NCBI RefSeq assembly: GCF_021729035.1
Contig: NZ_JAJSAP010000002.1
Span: forward strand, 372,001-436,000
Source of the DNA: Microbulbifer sediminum
GTDB taxonomy: Bacteria; Pseudomonadota; Gammaproteobacteria; Pseudomonadales; Cellvibrionaceae
Direction: 5' to 3'
Length of the DNA: 64,000 nucleotides
Shown here: one piece after another, positions 8,766-15,690 of the stretch
How positions within the stretch are numbered: position 1 is the first letter of the stretch
Layout of the letters: each line of letters begins with the position of its first letter
Program-made: the position numbers and the translations under genes
The notes under the pieces: generated by a model
Databases searched by the model: none
Told to the model about the DNA's origin: nothing
Seen by the model: the letters and a program-made list of their open reading frames with translations, nothing else

Positions 8766-8986
8766 GTGGATCTTCCTTGATGAGTCCGCCGTCATGCGGG
8801 AACGCCTTTCTCTGGTGGTTAGGCTACATATAGGCAAAATGCGCAACTTTTCAAGAAACTGGCGACGCTCTCCTCTTTTTATATCTCCAGGCGGGACATT
8901 ACCGCCAACAAAGCAGCCGTCACTTGGCTAGGCTTATGTGGGAGAGCGCGTAAGCCGATCTTCTGCAATCCTTGTTGGACGAACCT

Positions 8987-9697
8987 ATGGCAGTCAAGTA
9001 CGCACCCGTCTGGATCATCGTGCTGTGCATCATTGGGGTGGGGGTTGGCCTTGGCCTGCTTTTCTATTTCGACCTGGATGACCGCCTGATTGAGCTTTTG
9101 CAGTGGATGGAGAGTCGCGGCTGGCAGACGAGCCTGCTGTTTATCCTGGTCATTGCGCTGGCCATTGTGGTGCTCGCCCCTGGCGTGATTTTCACCATGG
9201 GGGCGGGCTTCGTGTTCGGTGTAGTCAAGGGAACATTGCTGGTGGTGGCAGGCACCGTCCTCGGTGCTACCATCGCCTTCCTGGCTGCCCGCTACCTTTT
9301 CGGCCCCCGGCCCTCCAGGTGGTTGATGTCACATGTACGGCCACCCCACCTGGGCGAAGTGATCAAGGATGAGGGCTGGCGCCTGGTCATGCTCACAAGG
9401 CTGGTGCCGCTGTTTCCCTTCAAGCTGTCAAACTATTTTTTTGGGCTGACACCGGTTCGCTTGCGGGACTTTGTCATCGGCAATGCCATCGGGATCATAC
9501 CGATCACCATACACAATGTGTACGTGGGATCGATCGCTTCAGACCTGGCAACGCTTGGCAGCAGGGAATCGGAGCGCACACCGGTGGAATGGACCCTGTA
9601 TGCACTCGGGTTCGTGCTGGCGGTGACTGCATTGATCGGCATTACCCGTATCGCACGGCGCGCGCTGGCACAGAAAATTGAACGGGAGGATATCTAA
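8987..9697 (+). CDS. TVP38/TMEM64 (VTT-domain, DedA superfamily) membrane protein
   Basis: A 236-aa integral membrane protein with a VTT domain. The glycine-rich segment GFVFGVVKGTLLVVAGTVLG (around residues 73-92) and the later RLVPLFPFKLSNYFFGLT (around residues 138-155) are the two family signatures; the second includes the conserved Arg and Pro. DedA/VTT proteins are linked to lipid scrambling, including undecaprenyl phosphate flipping. GGAC is placed 6 bases before the ATG at 8987; the TTG at 8972 has no ribosome site. Its TAA overlaps the next ATG by one base, so it opens the four-gene cluster that ends at 15690 and probably supplies the membrane-lipid function of that locus. Confidence 0.85.
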   Translation: MAVKYAPVWIIVLCIIGVGVGLGLLFYFDLDDRLIELLQWMESRGWQTSLLFILVIALAIVVLAPGVIFTMGAGFVFGVVKGTLLVVAGTVLGATIAFLAARYLFGPRPSRWLMSHVRPPHLGEVIKDEGWRLVMLTRLVPLFPFKLSNYFFGLTPVRLRDFVIGNAIGIIPITIHNVYVGSIASDLATLGSRESERTPVEWTLYALGFVLAVTALIGITRIARRALAQKIEREDI

Positions 9698-11958
9698 TGC
9701 CCTGGATGAAATGGCTGCCCTGGCGTTTCTTCGTCCGCAAGTTTGCCACCTCCCATGGCTTTGTCGATCCGCTCTCGGTCATGGCGCATATGCAGCGGTT
9801 CGCACAACCGTCCGAAGTCGCCGAGCCGATCGAGCTTCTGCGAGCCGGTGTCATCTTTCATGCCCGCGCACTGATCAACAGCAAGGTGATCCAGCACAAC
9901 CTCGACTGGGTATGGCCCTACTGGGTTGAACGGCAGTTTGATCCTCTGGACAAGTCCTTTATTCCCCGCGCATTTTCAATTACGCACTGCAACCTCAGTC
10001 ACCGAAACTGGACCGCGGTGGGTCTCCCCGACTGTGAGGAAATGCCACTGGTGGATCCGCGCGGCCTGCTGACCCCGCATTACGACGGCTGGTCAATCGA
10101 CACCTGGATTATCAGCGACAGCGGTGAGCAACTGGTTCCATCAAGACTGGAGCAATGTCGCCAGGAGTTCCTGCTGGGCGACAATATCAGTGTGCTGACC
10201 GAGTCCAGCCACGCCGGAATGCTCCTTCGTAATCGCGCTGTGGTGGAACGTGAAAACGGCCGCAATCAATGCCTGCTGCAACTCCAGGCTGAGAGTGGCA
10301 CCGGTGGGTGGTTGGTCGTAGCACTGCGTCCCTACAATCCTGAAGGGGTCAGTTTTGTGCACAGGGTACGGCTGGATAATAGCCGCAGGAAGTGGCTCAT
10401 CGAGAAGAAGTTTGCGGTCGAGTTCGATCGGCCACTCGAGCGTCACCTCGCTTCCGATTACCGTCATGGCGATATCTACCTGCACCTGCACGACGAGGGC
10501 GGTCGTACCCACGGTGAGTGTGAGGTGGGTATGGCAACTGCCGCGGCCATGTTCAGGATCGAACCGGGAAAGCCGCTGGATGTCCAGGTGAAAGTTCCGC
10601 TTGCGCCGGACCAACCCGGCGACCCGGATCGCCAGTCGCCCGCCACGCCGGGGAACTGGGATGAAACCCTGGCCAACCACTGTGCGATGGCCGTCCCCGA
10701 CCAGAAAATGCAATTTCTCTACGATGCCGCCATCCGCACCCTGATCCTGCACTCGCCGAAGGATGTCTATCCAGGCCCCTATACCTACAAGCGCTTCTGG
10801 TTCCGTGACGCGGCGTTTATGATCCAGTCGCTGTTGTACGCTGGCCTGTTGGACCGCGCCGAACGGGCCCTCGACCAGTTTCCCCACCGCCAGAAGCGCG
10901 ATGGTTTTTTTCATTCCCAGGATGGCGAATGGGATTCGAACGGCGAGGCCCTGTGGATCTTTGACCTGTACTGCCAGCTTACAAACCGGCCCCTCAAACC
11001 CCGCTGGCGCCAGGCGGTATTGCGCGGGGCCAGCTGGATCGACGACAAGCGGCTGCCCAGGGACGGCAGCCGCTGTGGCGGCCTGCTGCCGGCGGGCTTC
11101 AGTGCCGAGCATCTGGGACCAAACGATTGCTACTACTGGGATGATTTCTGGGGTGTGGGAGGCCTGCAGGCTGCCGCCGCCATGTGCGCGCGGGAAGGGC
11201 TGGAAAACGACAGTACCCGCTTCTCGCACCAGGCGACGGATTTCCAGCAAACCATCGATGCCAGCCTCGCCGCAGCCGCTGAGCGCCTGGGCCGCCCGGC
11301 GATGCCGGCCTCGCCGAACCGGCGCCTGGATCCCGGTGCCATCGGTTCCATTGTGGCCGGCTATCCGTTGAGCCTTTACCCACCGGATGATCCGCGACTG
11401 CTTGACCTGGCAGAATTCCTGATGGAGAAATGCTTTGTCGCCGGCGGCTTCTTCCAGGACATGATCCATTCAGGTATCAATGCCTATCTGACCCTGCACA
11501 TCGCACAGGTGCTCCTGCGCGCGGGGAATGCCCGGTGCGTGGAGCTGATGCGTAACGTTGCGCAGCTGGCGTCGCCCACCGGGCAATGGCCCGAGGCCAT
11601 CCATCCGCACTCACTGGGCGGTTGCATGGGTGATGGCCAGCACGCCTGGGCCGCCGCCGAATGGGTGGCGATGCAGCGCAACTGCTTCGTGCGCGAGGAA
11701 GGCGGCACGCTGGTCCTTGTATCCGGCCTGCCCCCGGAATGGCTTAGCGACCAAACCGCCACCGCTTCACTGCATTTCGGGCCGGCGCCAACCCGCTTCG
11801 GCCGTATCACTGTGGAGGTGGCCCCGGGGGCTACCCCAAGGGTGAGCTGGATGGCCGAATGGCATGGGGAGGAACCCCCGATCGAGGTCCGTGCGCTGGG
11901 CTTTACCGCCATCCGGGCCGCTCCAGGGGCCCAGGAAGTGGAGCTCGCGCCGCAGTGA
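9697..11958 (+). CDS. Six-hairpin glycosidase-like protein (glycogen-debranching/GH15-like fold)
   Basis: A 753-aa cytosolic protein without signal peptide. Residues ~1-330 look like beta-rich accessory sequence. Residues ~340-690 resemble an (alpha/alpha)6 barrel as in amylo-alpha-1,6-glucosidases, with aromatic and acidic clusters KRFWFRDAAF (D371), DGEWDSNGEALW (D409, E411, D413, E417) and DCYYWDDFWGVGG. The late HPHSLGGCMGDGQHAWAAAEW repeats the helix-plus-acid pattern. Catalytic acid and base cannot be assigned by eye. It is translationally coupled to the VTT gene (TAATG) and overlaps the glycosyltransferase by four bases. No glycogen genes are near, so a role in turnover of the product of the adjacent glycosyltransferase is more likely than glycogen metabolism. 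Confidence 0.6.
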   Translation: MPWMKWLPWRFFVRKFATSHGFVDPLSVMAHMQRFAQPSEVAEPIELLRAGVIFHARALINSKVIQHNLDWVWPYWVERQFDPLDKSFIPRAFSITHCNLSHRNWTAVGLPDCEEMPLVDPRGLLTPHYDGWSIDTWIISDSGEQLVPSRLEQCRQEFLLGDNISVLTESSHAGMLLRNRAVVERENGRNQCLLQLQAESGTGGWLVVALRPYNPEGVSFVHRVRLDNSRRKWLIEKKFAVEFDRPLERHLASDYRHGDIYLHLHDEGGRTHGECEVGMATAAAMFRIEPGKPLDVQVKVPLAPDQPGDPDRQSPATPGNWDETLANHCAMAVPDQKMQFLYDAAIRTLILHSPKDVYPGPYTYKRFWFRDAAFMIQSLLYAGLLDRAERALDQFPHRQKRDGFFHSQDGEWDSNGEALWIFDLYCQLTNRPLKPRWRQAVLRGASWIDDKRLPRDGSRCGGLLPAGFSAEHLGPNDCYYWDDFWGVGGLQAAAAMCAREGLENDSTRFSHQATDFQQTIDASLAAAAERLGRPAMPASPNRRLDPGAIGSIVAGYPLSLYPPDDPRLLDLAEFLMEKCFVAGGFFQDMIHSGINAYLTLHIAQVLLRAGNARCVELMRNVAQLASPTGQWPEAIHPHSLGGCMGDGQHAWAAAEWVAMQRNCFVREEGGTLVLVSGLPPEWLSDQTATASLHFGPAPTRFGRITVEVAPGATPRVSWMAEWHGEEPPIEVRALGFTAIRAAPGAQEVELAPQ

Positions 11959-13229
11959 ACATTGTGATGCTCACTAATACCTATCTCCCCCATGTGGGTG
12001 GTGTGGCACGCTCGGTGGCAGCCTTTGCGGCAGAATACCGCGCCCGCGGACACCGGGTTCTCATCGTGGCACCGGAGTTCTCCCAGTACGTCAAGGGAGA
12101 AGAGGACGTGGTTCGCATCCATGCCATCCAGAACTTTAATGGCAGCGATTTTTCCGTGGCCCTGCCCTTCTCCGGACACCTCAGCGATCGACTCGATGAA
12201 TTCCAGCCCGACATTGTGCACTCGCACCACCCTTTCCTGCTCGGCATGACCGCAGTGCGCATTGCCCGCTCCCGCGGGCTGCCCCTGGTTTTCACCCATC
12301 ACACTCTCTACGAGCGCTATACCCACTATGTCCCCGCAGACTCCCAGGCCCTGAAACGCTTTGTGATCGAGCTGGCTACGCGGTATGCCAACCTTGCGAG
12401 CCTGGTGTTTGCGCCCAGCGAGAGTATTGCGCGCATCCTGCGCGAACGCGGTGTCACCACTCCGATCGAGGAGATGCCCACGGGGCTACAGGAGGAGCAG
12501 TATTTGCCCGGCGATGGCGCGCGCATGCGAGCGGAGCTCGGCATCCCCGCGGACGCCTATCTCCTGGGTCACCTGGGTCGGCTGGCTCCGGAAAAAAACC
12601 TCGAATTTACCGCGCTGGCAGTGGCGGATTTTATGCAGGAACACACTGACACACACTTCCTGCTGGTTGGCAGTGGCCCCAGCTCCGGCATGATCGAGAA
12701 TATTTTTAATGCCAGGGGGATGGCTGGCAGGCTGCATGTGCCCGGCACGCTCCAGGGCTCCCGCCAGCGCGACGCCTATGCTGCAATGGACACCTTCGTA
12801 TTCGCCTCAACCAGCGAAACCCAGGGCATGGTGCTGACTGAAGCCATGGCCGCATCGGTACCGGTGGTTGCCCTTGATGCCAATGGCAGCAGGGAAGTAG
12901 TGCGCGACAAAATCAATGGCCGCCTCGTGACAGCGGCTAACCGCCAGGACTTCAGTGATGCCATCGCATGGATTTACCGCCGCTCAGCCGACGATCGCCG
13001 GCTACTGCACACCGCTGCCCTGGAGACTGCCCGTGATTTCTCCATGGAGCGCTGCGCCACCAGGGCCCTGGATCTCTATCGGCCGCTACTGAAAAAAAGC
13101 TGGGCCCTCGATGATTCGGTCTACGACCAGTGGATGCGGCTGCGCAACCTGATCGCCGCCCAGTGGGACATCCTGGAGGGCGTGACCAGTGCCGCCGGTG
13201 CGGCCTTTGGCCAGCCGCCACGCCGCTAG
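11955..13229 (+). CDS. GT4-family glycosyltransferase, diglucosyl-diacylglycerol synthase-like
   Basis: A 424-aa GT-B retaining glycosyltransferase. The N-terminus NIVMLTNTYLPHVGGVARSV is the GT4 glycine loop; DIVHSHHPFLLG and FTHHTLYERYTHY follow. The nucleotide-sugar half has GHLGRLAPEKNLEF (around residue 205), then FVFASTSETQGMVLTEAMA with the EX7E motif, and DANGSREVV. This pattern is shared with bacterial glucosyl-diacylglycerol synthases and mannosyltransferases, so a lipid acceptor is plausible. The GTG start at 11955 overlaps the previous TGA by four bases; a longer reading would overlap the upstream gene by ~100 bases. Gene order suggests it makes a glycolipid handled by the neighbouring membrane protein and hydrolases. 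Confidence 0.85.
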   Translation: MNIVMLTNTYLPHVGGVARSVAAFAAEYRARGHRVLIVAPEFSQYVKGEEDVVRIHAIQNFNGSDFSVALPFSGHLSDRLDEFQPDIVHSHHPFLLGMTAVRIARSRGLPLVFTHHTLYERYTHYVPADSQALKRFVIELATRYANLASLVFAPSESIARILRERGVTTPIEEMPTGLQEEQYLPGDGARMRAELGIPADAYLLGHLGRLAPEKNLEFTALAVADFMQEHTDTHFLLVGSGPSSGMIENIFNARGMAGRLHVPGTLQGSRQRDAYAAMDTFVFASTSETQGMVLTEAMAASVPVVALDANGSREVVRDKINGRLVTAANRQDFSDAIAWIYRRSADDRRLLHTAALETARDFSMERCATRALDLYRPLLKKSWALDDSVYDQWMRLRNLIAAQWDILEGVTSAAGAAFGQPPRR

Positions 13230-13248
13230 CAGCAGGTTTGCACATCCT

Positions 13249-15690
13249 ATGATGAGTCGTATTGAGACAGCCCTGCGCCGACTGCGCCGCCGCTTCAGCC
13301 GCAGCGCGTGGATGGCTCACCTACTCAAGTTGCCCACCAGTGACAGCCATCCCAGTGATCACGGCCTTATCCTGATCCAGGTGGACGGGCTCGCCTATCC
13401 CCAGCTGCAGAAAGCCCTCGCGAAAAAAAGAATGCCCTTCCTGCAGAAACTGATCCGTAAGGAACACTACCAACTCGACCATCTTTTTTCCGGGGTTCCA
13501 TCGACAACCCCCGCCGTCCAGGCCGAATTGTTCTACGGTGTTCGCGCAATCGTGCCCGCTTTCGGGTTCATGATGCGTGACACCCAGCAACTGGTGCGTA
13601 TGTACGATCCGGAGGCCGCCTGTGCCGTTGAGGAAAAACTCGAGGCGCGCGTAGACGATCCACTGCTCAAGGACGGCAGCTGCTACCTGAGCCTGTTCCG
13701 TGCCGGCACCGCCGATGGCGAGGCACATTTCTGTCCCGCTTCCCGCGGCTGGGGGCCGGCGATGCGCGAGGCCACCCCACTCACCGTGATACTCGTGATC
13801 CTCAGCAACCTGTGGGGACTGATCCGTACCGGGGCCCTGCTACTTGTCGAACTGGTGCTGGCGGTGATCGACTCGATCCGGGGGGTCTTCTCGGGGGAAA
13901 ACTTCTGGCGTGAGCTGATGTTCATTCCCACACGCGTCGCTGTCACCATCCTGATGCGCGAGCTGTGCACCTTCGGGGTCAAGATCGACATAGCCCGCGG
14001 CCTCCCGGTGATCTACGTCAACCTGCTGGGATACGACGAGCAGTCACACCGGCGCGGCCCTAACTCGGCATTTGCCCACTGGGTGCTCAAGGGCATCGAT
14101 GATGCCATCGGGCGCATCTGGCGGGCTGCACACCGGTCAGAAAAGCGACAGTACGATGTCTGGATCTTCTCCGACCACGGCCAGGAGCAGGCCGAACCCT
14201 ACGAGGTGCGCCACGGTCGCAGCCTGGGGGAAGCCCTTTCCGAGGCTCTGCGCGACCTGCCCGGTGATACAAGCAGCTATCGCAGTACCGGCCGTCGCGG
14301 GGTACAGTTGGAGCGGGCACGCATGTTCGGCAGTGAGTGGATCGAAAAAATGATCCCGGAGGATGGCAATGGCACGGGGTCAGAGCCGCCACTGGCGCTC
14401 GCCGCCCTGGGTCCGGTTGCCATGCTGTACAACCTGCGGACAAATGGCACACCACGGGCCGAGGTAGCCCGCTTGATCGTCGAGCGCGCCGCGGTGCCAC
14501 TGGTCCTTTACCGGGCCTCAGACGATGACAACGCTCCGGTGCACGGCTGGTGGCGTGATGGTGCCGTGGAATTGCCCCGGGATGGCCAGCTCCTGATGGG
14601 CGACGAGCACCCCTTCGCAGAGCAGACCGCTATCGATCTCGCGCGCCTGTGCCATCATCCCGATGCCGGTGATTTCATCATGTGTGGCTGGTGCGTGGGG
14701 GAGGAGCCGATGACCTTCGCCGTTGAAAACGGCAGCCATGGCGGGCCCGGCCCGACCGAAACCAATGCCTTCGCCCTGCTGCCCAAAGACATCCGGCGCC
14801 CGTCACAGGGGTACTGGCGCGCCGGGGACCTGCGGCGCGCGGCACAGCAGTTCCTGCATCACTACTATCCCCTGGTTCCGGTTCACCGGCCAACGGCCGT
14901 CAGGACCCTGCGGGTAATGACCTACAACGTACACAGTTGCCAGGGCGTCGACGGCAAGTACTCGGCGCGGCGTATCGCCCGCGTGATTGCCCGTTACCAG
15001 CCCGATGTGGTGGCACTACAGGAGCTCGACGTCAGCCGTCCGCGCAGCGGCGGGGAGGACCAGGCGGAACGGATCGCCCGCTATCTACAGATGGATTTCC
15101 AGTTCCACCCCGCCATCCACATGGAGGAGGAACGCTATGGCGATGCCATCCTGTCGCGACTGCCAATGCGGGTAATCAAGAAGGAGATCCTGCCGGGCCC
15201 ACCGGAAGCCGCCTCCATGTCACTGCTACCCACCGTGGATGAGCCCCGCGGCGCGGTCTGGGTAGAGATCGATCACAACGGTGAGAAGGTGCAGATCGTG
15301 AATACCCACCTGGGACTCAGCAAGGCGGAACGCCTGCGCCAGGTGGACGCGCTGGTAGGACCGGAGTGGCTGGGACACCCGGAGTGCAATGGGCACAAGG
15401 TATTACTGGGAGACTTCAATACGCTGCCCAATTCCGCCGAACACAAGCGCCTGTGCGAGCACCTACACGACGCCCAGGTCCATCTCGCCAACCACCGTCC
15501 CCGGGGAACCTTTCCCAGTCGGCTGTCCCGGGCCCGGATCGACTATATATTCATCGGCCGGCGCCTGAAGGTGTCAAAAGTACTGGTGCCGCGCACAGAG
15601 CTGACCCAGGTGGCATCGGATCACCTGCCACTGGTGGCGGACCTGGAGTTACCGGCCGCCAGGGGTGAACGGGACGCCAACGGCCAGTGA
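13249..15690 (+). CDS. Fusion of alkaline-phosphatase-superfamily and endonuclease/exonuclease/phosphatase (EEP) domains
   Basis: An 813-aa two-enzyme fusion. Domain 1 (about 38-540) has the metal-ligand pattern of phosphodiesterase/nucleotide pyrophosphatases: D46 (QVDGLAYP), nucleophile Thr 86/87 (PSTTPAVQ), D263 and H267 (GYDEQSHRRGP), D309 and H310 (FSDHGQEQ), H497 (NGSHGGPG). It is interrupted by a hydrophobic stretch at 178-212 that could form one or two membrane segments. Domain 2 (about 554-805) is a complete EEP fold: MTYNVHS (N560), VALQELD, VNTHLG, LLGDFNTLP, IDYIFIG and SDHLPL. EEP members cleave phosphodiesters in DNA, inositol lipids or sphingomyelin. The ATG at 13249 follows the GT4 stop by 19 bases. 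With both active sites intact and lipid-type neighbours, a phospholipid or glycolipid head-group hydrolase is my inference. Confidence 0.82.
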   Translation: MMSRIETALRRLRRRFSRSAWMAHLLKLPTSDSHPSDHGLILIQVDGLAYPQLQKALAKKRMPFLQKLIRKEHYQLDHLFSGVPSTTPAVQAELFYGVRAIVPAFGFMMRDTQQLVRMYDPEAACAVEEKLEARVDDPLLKDGSCYLSLFRAGTADGEAHFCPASRGWGPAMREATPLTVILVILSNLWGLIRTGALLLVELVLAVIDSIRGVFSGENFWRELMFIPTRVAVTILMRELCTFGVKIDIARGLPVIYVNLLGYDEQSHRRGPNSAFAHWVLKGIDDAIGRIWRAAHRSEKRQYDVWIFSDHGQEQAEPYEVRHGRSLGEALSEALRDLPGDTSSYRSTGRRGVQLERARMFGSEWIEKMIPEDGNGTGSEPPLALAALGPVAMLYNLRTNGTPRAEVARLIVERAAVPLVLYRASDDDNAPVHGWWRDGAVELPRDGQLLMGDEHPFAEQTAIDLARLCHHPDAGDFIMCGWCVGEEPMTFAVENGSHGGPGPTETNAFALLPKDIRRPSQGYWRAGDLRRAAQQFLHHYYPLVPVHRPTAVRTLRVMTYNVHSCQGVDGKYSARRIARVIARYQPDVVALQELDVSRPRSGGEDQAERIARYLQMDFQFHPAIHMEEERYGDAILSRLPMRVIKKEILPGPPEAASMSLLPTVDEPRGAVWVEIDHNGEKVQIVNTHLGLSKAERLRQVDALVGPEWLGHPECNGHKVLLGDFNTLPNSAEHKRLCEHLHDAQVHLANHRPRGTFPSRLSRARIDYIFIGRRLKVSKVLVPRTELTQVASDHLPLVADLELPAARGERDANGQ

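What the first reader, a model, noticed from the sequence alone, without database searches (positions are those of the whole stretch)
8987..15690. Four-gene VTT / six-hairpin hydrolase / GT4 / phosphatase-EEP cluster
Genes overlap by 1 and 4 bases and the last gap is 19 bases, so this is one transcription and translation unit. The parts (possible lipid scramblase, diglucosyl-diacylglycerol-synthase-like transferase, glycosidase-like enzyme, double phosphodiesterase) together would suit removal of phosphorylated head groups and their replacement or turnover by sugars. I know of no described pathway with this set. A role in phosphate-sparing lipid remodelling is inference; no Pho box was recognised upstream.
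Basis: partly seen in the sequence, partly recalled or inferred. Interest (0 to 1): 0.75.

Follow-up and report, generated by a model that had tools for sequence, protein, structure and literature searches.

The report
Probable glycolipid-cycle gene cluster in Microbulbifer
Four overlapping genes, kept side by side in the Microbulbifer genomes examined and found again in distant bacteria, look like an undescribed membrane machine that strips a phosphate group from a lipid, adds sugar and takes sugar off again, but nobody has tested what it does.

Summary
In detail: four genes at window 8987-15690, overlaps of 1 and 4 bases, a 19-base gap. All 37 genomes of the genus in one search have the 753-aa protein, and 26 of 26 Microbulbifer loci keep the order VTT, 753-aa protein, GT4, AP-EEP. 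All or part of the set recurs in other gammaproteobacteria and in Nitrospinota- and Fibrobacterota-type genomes. The 753-aa protein matches no Pfam or NCBIfam family; its model resembles GH15-type glucosidases. The last protein joins an autotaxin/NPP-like domain to an EEP domain. Of 45 other glucosidase-bearing genomes tested, 30 have an AP homologue somewhere. A paralogous set (glucosidase plus a longer GT4) lies beside PstS/PhoU-type genes in 5 of 9 loci and OlsB-like genes in 3. A glycolipid-making and -recycling role is the best-supported reading. Phosphate control of the Microbulbifer copy is not supported: no Pho box, no phosphate genes near 21 orthologous and 26 Microbulbifer loci. Glycogen/trehalose-type neighbours in 5 of those 21 support a rival alpha-glucan role. 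No activity has been shown.

The parts
8924..8935 (+). Conserved upstream element TTGGCTAGGCTT (consensus about TTGRCTAGKCTW), about 60 bases before the VTT start; role unknown
   Evidence: Recognisable, with variants, in the aligned upstream regions of 24 Microbulbifer sequences (window plus 23 of 26 loci); pattern TTGNCTAGNCTW found twice in the own genome, the other match inside a reading frame
8987..9697 (+). VTT-domain membrane protein, 236 aa; possible lipid translocase (inference)
   Evidence: PF09335 87.5 bits against cut-off 33.9; four hydrophobic segments
9697..11958 (+). 753-aa GH15-like glucosidase of an unnamed family; N-terminal extension of about 100 residues starting MPWMKWLPWR; candidate catalytic acid E471 and base E633, WxRD at 368-371
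11955..13229 (+). GT4 glycosyltransferase, 424 aa; candidate glucolipid synthase (inference)
   Evidence: PF13439/PF00534; best NCBIfam models alpha-monoglucosyl-DAG synthase (129.7 bits, cut-off 400) and N-acetylglucosaminyl-PG synthase (119.3, cut-off 480); EX7E at 288-296
13249..15690 (+). 813-aa double phosphodiesterase-type protein: NPP/AP-superfamily half (about residues 16-542) with hydrophobic segments at 174-192 and 196-214, then EEP half (about 550-803)

Best explanation
The cluster encodes an inner-membrane glycolipid cycle. The AP-EEP protein, on the cytoplasmic face, removes a phosphate-bearing head group from a glycerolipid (two phosphodiesterase/phosphatase steps, leaving diacylglycerol or a like acceptor). 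The GT4 enzyme adds an alpha-linked sugar, most likely glucose. The GH15-like enzyme, held to the membrane by its conserved N-terminal helices, removes that alpha-glucose again so that the lipid can be recycled or trimmed. The VTT protein moves the lipid across the bilayer. Shown here: gene linkage, co-occurrence, predicted folds, conserved candidate catalytic residues. Inferred: lipid substrate, sugar identity, order of steps, topology, VTT transport. It works like PlcP-Agt lipid remodelling but with unrelated phosphodiesterases and an added glucosidase; phosphate control of this copy is not supported.
For: One translation unit, same order in 26 of 26 Microbulbifer loci. Glucosidase and GT4 orthologue co-occur: of 61 genomes of the family 7 have both, 1 only the glucosidase, 1 only GT4, 52 neither; identity matrices correlate at r=0.91 over 23 loci. 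AP homologues are in 30 of 45 other glucosidase-bearing genomes tested: 7 of 11 and 23 of 34, including 18 of 20 Fibrobacterota-type genomes. In 3 of those 20 where the glucosidase stands alone, GT4 and AP-EEP are adjacent elsewhere. For the window's GT4 the two best NCBIfam models are glucolipid-type synthases. The AP half is autotaxin-like, and sphingomyelinases are among the EEP matches. The GH15-like fold with invariant E471/E633 and WxRD fits an alpha-glucosidase, and a retaining GT4 would make that bond (family knowledge). The paralogous set lies beside PstS/PhoU-type genes in 5 of 9 loci and OlsB-like genes in 3, with a PlsC-type acyltransferase and an AP-superfamily gene in L129. Six Microbulbifer strains in one table all list glycolipids (PMC9637087, passages).
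Against: No substrate, lipid or mutant data. The GT4 is far below every curated cut-off, and non-lipid models (MshA, BshA, TuaC) also match all 16 members scanned. The EEP half also matches nucleases and sugar phosphatases, so its substrate is open. In 5 of 21 orthologous loci the neighbours are glycogen/trehalose-type genes, and none of the 21 has phosphate genes. No VTT match (E 1e-10) in the 10 orthologous Fibrobacterota-type loci tabulated. VTT plus glucosidase without GT4 or AP-EEP occurs in 8 loci; these 8 genomes have no AP homologue and only a 32-35% identical GT4. AP is also not found in 7 further genomes (G457 = Hahella sp. HN01, G459, G491, G572, G582, G723, G998). No broad control for AP in genomes without the glucosidase was run. 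Lipid chemotaxonomy is not clean: 4 of 9 columns of a PMC11426391 table list GL, and its text says the sister genus lacks glycolipids although the column with that strain's G+C content lists GL.
Confidence: 0.45

Rival explanations
1. Alpha-glucan or osmolyte metabolism: GT4 makes a short alpha-glucan or alpha-glucoside from ADP- or UDP-glucose, the GH15-like enzyme trims it, and the phosphodiesterase frees phosphate from a phospho-sugar or nucleotide sugar; membrane attachment is incidental.
For: Glycogen/trehalose-type genes are neighbours in 5 of 21 orthologous loci tested (L056, L119, L124, L127, L142), in L142 on both sides of the cluster: glucokinase-like and GlgA, then GlgB and GlgC. 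The GH15 fold is that of glucoamylases. Of 16 GT4 members, 9 match one glycogen synthase model and 3 another, more weakly.
Against: No such neighbour in 26 of 26 Microbulbifer loci. The AP half resembles autotaxin and has two hydrophobic segments; the VTT partner is a membrane protein; the paralogous set sits with PstS/PhoU-type and lipid genes. The neighbour scan used query proteins taken from the loci themselves, so it was not blind.
Confidence: 0.22
2. A polyprenyl-phosphate system: VTT recycles undecaprenyl phosphate, GT4 loads a sugar on a carrier, AP-EEP hydrolyses the carrier phosphate or a pyrophosphate, and the glucosidase edits the product, for a surface glycan.
For: VTT/DedA-type proteins are linked to undecaprenyl-phosphate transport (recalled); a GH beside a GT is usual in glycan loci (recalled); PF09335 confirmed.
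Against: None of the four genes is a polymerase, exporter or initiating transferase by domain. No VTT match in the 10 orthologous Fibrobacterota-type loci tabulated. The two best NCBIfam models for the window's GT4 are glycerolipid ones.
Confidence: 0.18
3. The genes are linked only by descent in Microbulbifer and have no common function.
For: Within the genus the downstream Bax1-I-type gene is also kept in 26 of 26 loci, so synteny there is weak evidence.
Against: Recurrence in other flanks and phyla, with re-ordered parts (L125, L126, L134) and with GT4-AP-EEP pairs apart from the glucosidase.
Confidence: 0.05

Closest known systems
PlcP-Agt phosphorus-stress lipid remodelling
   Same: A phosphodiesterase gene coupled to a GT4 glycosyltransferase; would replace phospholipid head groups by sugars (PMC4796936, PMC8231724, PMC8528852: passages).
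   Different: Phosphodiesterase is NPP/AP plus EEP, not PlcP; an extra GH15-like glucosidase and a VTT protein; no Pho box found; GT4 only distantly matched to curated lipid GT4 models.
GH15 glucoamylase, glucodextranase and relatives
   Same: Beta-sandwich plus six-hairpin barrel; 516 and 517 residues aligned at 3.2 and 3.1 A to 1lf6 and 1ug9; WxRD and two candidate catalytic glutamates invariant.
   Different: 14% identity to both; no family model matched; conserved N-terminal extension; no hydrophobic segment found; encoded with GT4 and phosphodiesterase.
alpha-Monoglucosyl-diacylglycerol synthase (NF049988) and N-acetylglucosaminyl-phosphatidylglycerol synthase (NF053787)
   Same: Best two NCBIfam models for the window's GT4, over nearly its whole catalytic length.
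   Different: 129.7 and 119.3 bits against cut-offs 400 and 480.
NPP family (autotaxin) and EEP family (PGAP2IP C-terminal domain, sphingomyelinases)
   Same: Fold and likely metal-ligand residues of each half.
   Different: The two halves are fused, with internal hydrophobic segments; no Pfam or NCBIfam family covers the whole protein.

Membership tests
GH15 (clan GH-L glucosidases) | Super-beta-sandwich plus (alpha/alpha)6 barrel | tested here: met
GH15 (clan GH-L glucosidases) | Two catalytic glutamates at acid and base positions, WxRD glucose-binding motif | tested here: inconclusive
   E471, E633, W368, R370, D371 invariant in 45 of 45; equivalence to the GH15 residues is inferred from order along the chain and recalled positions, not superposed
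GH15 (clan GH-L glucosidases) | Match to a family sequence model | tested here: not met
   No Pfam match up to E 5; PDB profile match to 1lf6 only E 0.012
PlcP-Agt lipid remodelling | PlcP-type metallophosphoesterase beside the GT | tested here: not met
   The operon's phosphodiesterase matches PF01663, PF03372 and PF23226 only
PlcP-Agt lipid remodelling | Pho box upstream | tested here: not met
   Best match per sequence 8-10 of 14 consensus positions over 24 Microbulbifer sequences, 9 for the window; no shuffle control was run
PlcP-Agt lipid remodelling | GT4 using DAG and UDP-sugar | not testable with these tools
   Only distant model matches
alpha-monoglucosyl-DAG synthase NF049988 | Curated cut-off of 400 bits | tested here: not met
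   129.7 bits
VTT domain (PF09335) | Curated cut-off | tested here: met
   87.5 against 33.9 bits
VTT domain (PF09335) | Lipid scramblase or translocase activity | not testable with these tools
   Family knowledge only
AP superfamily, NPP type | Fold and metal ligands | tested here: met
EEP family | Fold and catalytic motifs | tested here: met

The most novel reading that the evidence does not exclude
A glycolipid cycle not described before: a GT4 and a membrane-held GH15-like glucosidase that make and unmake a glucolipid, coupled to a phosphoesterase that has been exchanged in evolution (AP-EEP or AP alone here; a PHP-like domain fused to GT4 in the paralogous set beside PstS/PhoU genes; a degenerate metallophosphoesterase-like domain fused to GT4 with an LPG_synthase_TM protein in other Pseudomonadales). 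It would give Fibrobacterota-, Nitrospinota- and Microbulbifer-type bacteria a reversible, in some lineages phosphate-linked, way to swap phospholipid for sugar lipid.
Probability: 0.3. Interest if true: 0.8.

Novelty: new variant of a known kind. Interest (0 to 1): 0.6.

Why it matters
If true, bacterial sugar lipids would be shown to be taken apart as well as made, by a dedicated enzyme encoded with the maker. It would add a phosphodiesterase type (NPP-EEP) to lipid remodelling beyond PlcP, and give an unnamed glucosidase family and its partners, found in at least three phyla, a shared and testable function. It also gives a handle on the unnamed glycolipids reported in Microbulbifer strain descriptions.

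Tried and rejected
Pho-box control in Microbulbifer: 300 bases upstream in 24 sequences scanned, nothing convincing, no shuffle control. A shared regulon through the upstream element: only two exact matches in the genome, the operon's own and one inside a reading frame. PHP and metallophosphoesterase identity of the N-terminal halves of the longer GT4 proteins: suggested by motifs seen by eye, but no meaningful Pfam match up to E 5 and no PDB profile match up to E 1; the second seems to lack most expected metal ligands (by eye), so I call it degenerate and do not rest the case on it. Distant homologues in L091-L093 (23-25% identity, with F5/8-type-C domains) are not counted as orthologues. Glycolipid phenotype against gene presence in the sister genus: dropped, because PMC11426391's text and table disagree and no genome handle could be tied to that strain. 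Literature: searches (terms on Microbulbifer polar lipids, PlcP and lipid remodelling, glycolipid hydrolase, VTT/DedA with glycosyltransferase and phosphodiesterase, amylo-alpha-1 6-glucosidase, ornithine lipid and phosphate starvation) listed no paper whose title or abstract start describes this gene set; the library holds open-licence papers only, one search showed 15 of 360 and one search showed 10 of 23. The plain Foldseek search never ran; VIA-align rows were used.

Rows dropped before counts: one search examined 45 of the loci then held (5 Microbulbifer, 6 paralogous, 1 without the glucosidase, 33 orthologous). Three of the 33 are contigs of 6.1 kb or less (L054, L055, L057) and L135 is 6.7 kb, so absences there mean little. 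Microbulbifer was reduced to one locus (L031) for the correlations. The neighbour scan left out L146-L154, and its queries came from loci of the same set. Of the 35 genomes, G698 has no glucosidase and is left out of the 34; of the 14, G359, G432 and G447 have only distant homologues and are left out of the 11.
Full report
Observation. Domain scans give a VTT domain, a GT4 transferase and a Phosphodiest + Exo_endo_phos protein; the 753-aa protein matches nothing in Pfam, NCBIfam or, as a single sequence, the PDB. Upstream on the other strand are a TorF-type porin and an aldehyde dehydrogenase that I call betB-like by eye; downstream on the same strand is a Bax1-I-type protein.

Where it occurs. 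The window lies in contig C8 of a 3.85 Mb genome; a same-genus genome has a contig of exactly the length of the Microbulbifer sp. YPW16 chromosome and the same match position, hence the genus. All 36 same-genus companions have the 753-aa protein, against 0 of 21 other genomes of the order in that draw. A scan of named genomes returned 34 loci; 26 are Microbulbifer, and in all 26 the order VTT, 753-aa protein, GT4, AP-EEP is kept. Wider draws with a profile: 9 of 398 genomes of the phylum (5 near full length), 23 of 390 of the order, 8 of 61 of the family, 6 of 77 in the phylum of a Nitrospinaceae record, and 25 of 120 in the phylum of a Chitinispirillaceae record, 3 of these with the paralogue only (I call this phylum Fibrobacterota-type, a recalled placement). 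Outside Microbulbifer it is thus scattered in Pseudomonadota and fairly common in one other phylum.

What travels with what. In 33 non-Microbulbifer loci with an orthologue of at least 44% identity GT4 is in the locus in 22, VTT in 19, AP in 11, EEP in 10. All parts are in 7 (L053, L056, L090, L134, L140, L142, L146; in L142 AP and EEP lie in separate frames). Eleven of the 33 have no GT4 in the fetched stretch. For three of these (G615, G621, G591, Fibrobacterota-type) a GT4 of 52-53% identity is elsewhere in the genome, directly beside AP-EEP. For the other eight, with VTT plus glucosidase, the best GT4 in the genome is only 32-35% identical and is part of a fusion protein. In the 61 family genomes glucosidase and GT4 orthologue are both present in 7, glucosidase only in 1 (G670), GT4 only in 1 (G698), neither in 52; Fisher p = 1.4e-7, not corrected for relatedness, and 4 of the 7 are one genus. 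Identity matrices correlate (glucosidase-GT4 r=0.91 over 23 loci; VTT-glucosidase 0.88 over 20; glucosidase-AP 0.82 over 12), though shared descent alone raises such values.

AP-EEP genome-wide. Of 45 other genomes with a glucosidase orthologue tested for AP-EEP, 30 have an AP homologue: 7 of 11 and 23 of 34. Among 20 Fibrobacterota-type genomes 18 have it, 10 with a match over both halves and 8 with the AP half only; in G624 and G632 it lies just upstream of the glucosidase on the same contig. It was not found in the 8 VTT-plus-glucosidase genomes, nor in G457 (Hahella sp. HN01; a weak EEP only), G459, G491, G572, G582, G723 and G998, some of which are metagenome assemblies. No broad control in genomes without the glucosidase was run. 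The firmest tie is thus glucosidase with GT4; AP joins in two thirds of the tested genomes.

Neighbours that point to function. Around 21 orthologous loci tested, alpha-glucan genes occur in 5: GlgC in L056; glucokinase-like (below cut-off), GlgA, GlgB and GlgC around the cluster in L142; GlgX in L119; TreS in L124; GlgE-type and a cut-off TreS in L127. None of these 21, and none of 26 Microbulbifer loci, has a PstS, PhoU, PhoA or OlsB match. By contrast a paralogous set in Fibrobacterota-type genomes (glucosidase at 31-35% identity) has PstS and/or PhoU matches in 5 of 9 loci (L128, L129, L130, L133, L156), a Pfam-confirmed alkaline phosphatase in L133, OlsB-like acyltransferase genes in 3 (L128-L130), and in L129 also a PlsC-type acyltransferase and an AP-superfamily phosphodiesterase. 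L155 and L157, without these genes, are contigs of 12 and 8 kb; L131 and L132 lack them too. L128, L129, L130 and L156 are close relatives (PhoU 88-90% identical to that of L128), so these are about two independent lineages. The GT4 beside the paralogue is 883-939 aa in the four compared; its extra N-terminal half shows PHP-like motifs by eye, unconfirmed by Pfam or PDB profiles.

A related fusion. In other Pseudomonadales a GT4 is fused behind a domain that looks like a degenerate metallophosphoesterase, next to an LPG_synthase_TM protein in the one locus scanned (L141) and, by eye, in L145. The domain is present in 28 of 390 order genomes. Taking as the same draw (same size, shared handles), 12 of 13 glucosidase-bearing genomes outside Microbulbifer have it against 16 of 367 without the glucosidase (Fisher p = 2.4e-14; not corrected for relatedness, 8 of the 12 are one genus). 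This hints that the glucosidase needs some GT4 of this kind in the same cell; the Microbulbifer genomes have their own GT4 and lack the fusion (10 of 10).

Interpretation. A retaining GT4 makes alpha-glycosides and GH15-type enzymes cut alpha-glucosides (family knowledge), so maker and breaker fit. The phosphodiesterase partner, the VTT protein, the lean of the GT4 matches and the lipid/phosphate setting of the paralogous set favour a lipid acceptor; the glycogen neighbours favour an alpha-glucan or at least a tie to glucose storage. I put the lipid cycle at 0.45 and the alpha-glucan reading at 0.22. Phosphate-sparing control of the Microbulbifer copy is not supported by its promoter or neighbours. 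Six Microbulbifer strains in one table all list glycolipids and a phosphatidyl glycolipid (PMC9637087, passages); a second paper lists GL in 4 of 9 columns that I could not assign, and is inconsistent on the sister genus (PMC11426391, passages).

Known systems. The nearest by working principle is PlcP-Agt (PMC4796936, PMC8231724, PMC8528852; passages). The cluster is not a member: no PlcP-type enzyme in it, no Pho box, and a glucosidase that the passages on PlcP-Agt do not mention. I therefore rate it a new variant of a known kind, with an unnamed glucosidase family at its centre.

Noticed in passing
8924-8935: An element near TTGRCTAGKCTW is recognisable upstream of this operon in 24 Microbulbifer sequences; it could be a promoter or regulator site of unknown type.
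   Followed up: partly
L128 9075-14328, L129, L130, L133, L156: Paralogous glucosidase plus a GT4 with a PHP-like N-terminal half beside PstS/PhoU-type, alkaline phosphatase or OlsB-like genes: a candidate phosphate-linked lipid island in Fibrobacterota-type genomes.
   Followed up: partly
L141 6107-9405, L145 9199-12554: GT4 fused behind a degenerate metallophosphoesterase-like domain with a hydrophobic N-terminus, next to an LPG_synthase_TM protein (Pfam in L141, by eye in L145); the domain is in 28 of 390 order genomes.
   Followed up: partly
L098 8071-10295: A stand-alone EEP protein, 47% identical to the EEP half, lies end to end with a PLD-family gene, another hint of a phospholipid role for this EEP branch.
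   Followed up: no
L061 4738-5065 and G012:C1:682854: Short matches resembling the VTT end and glucosidase start, with a stop inside in G012, about 4 kb upstream of the intact cluster in one Microbulbifer.
   Followed up: no
L060 7471-8998: Two VTT genes in tandem in Microbulbifer elongatus SaN0-4.
   Followed up: no
L088, L089, L154: In three related Pseudomonadales loci VTT plus glucosidase lie beside genes that look like transketolase, gap, pgk and (in two) fba (by eye).
   Followed up: no
L158 5301-9184, L160 5849-9533: GT4-AP-EEP pairs lie next to a protein that looks like a small mechanosensitive channel (by eye).
   Followed up: no
PMC11426391: The text says glycolipids were not detected in Biformimicrobium NKW57, while the table column with that strain's G+C content (58.8%) lists GL.
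   Followed up: no
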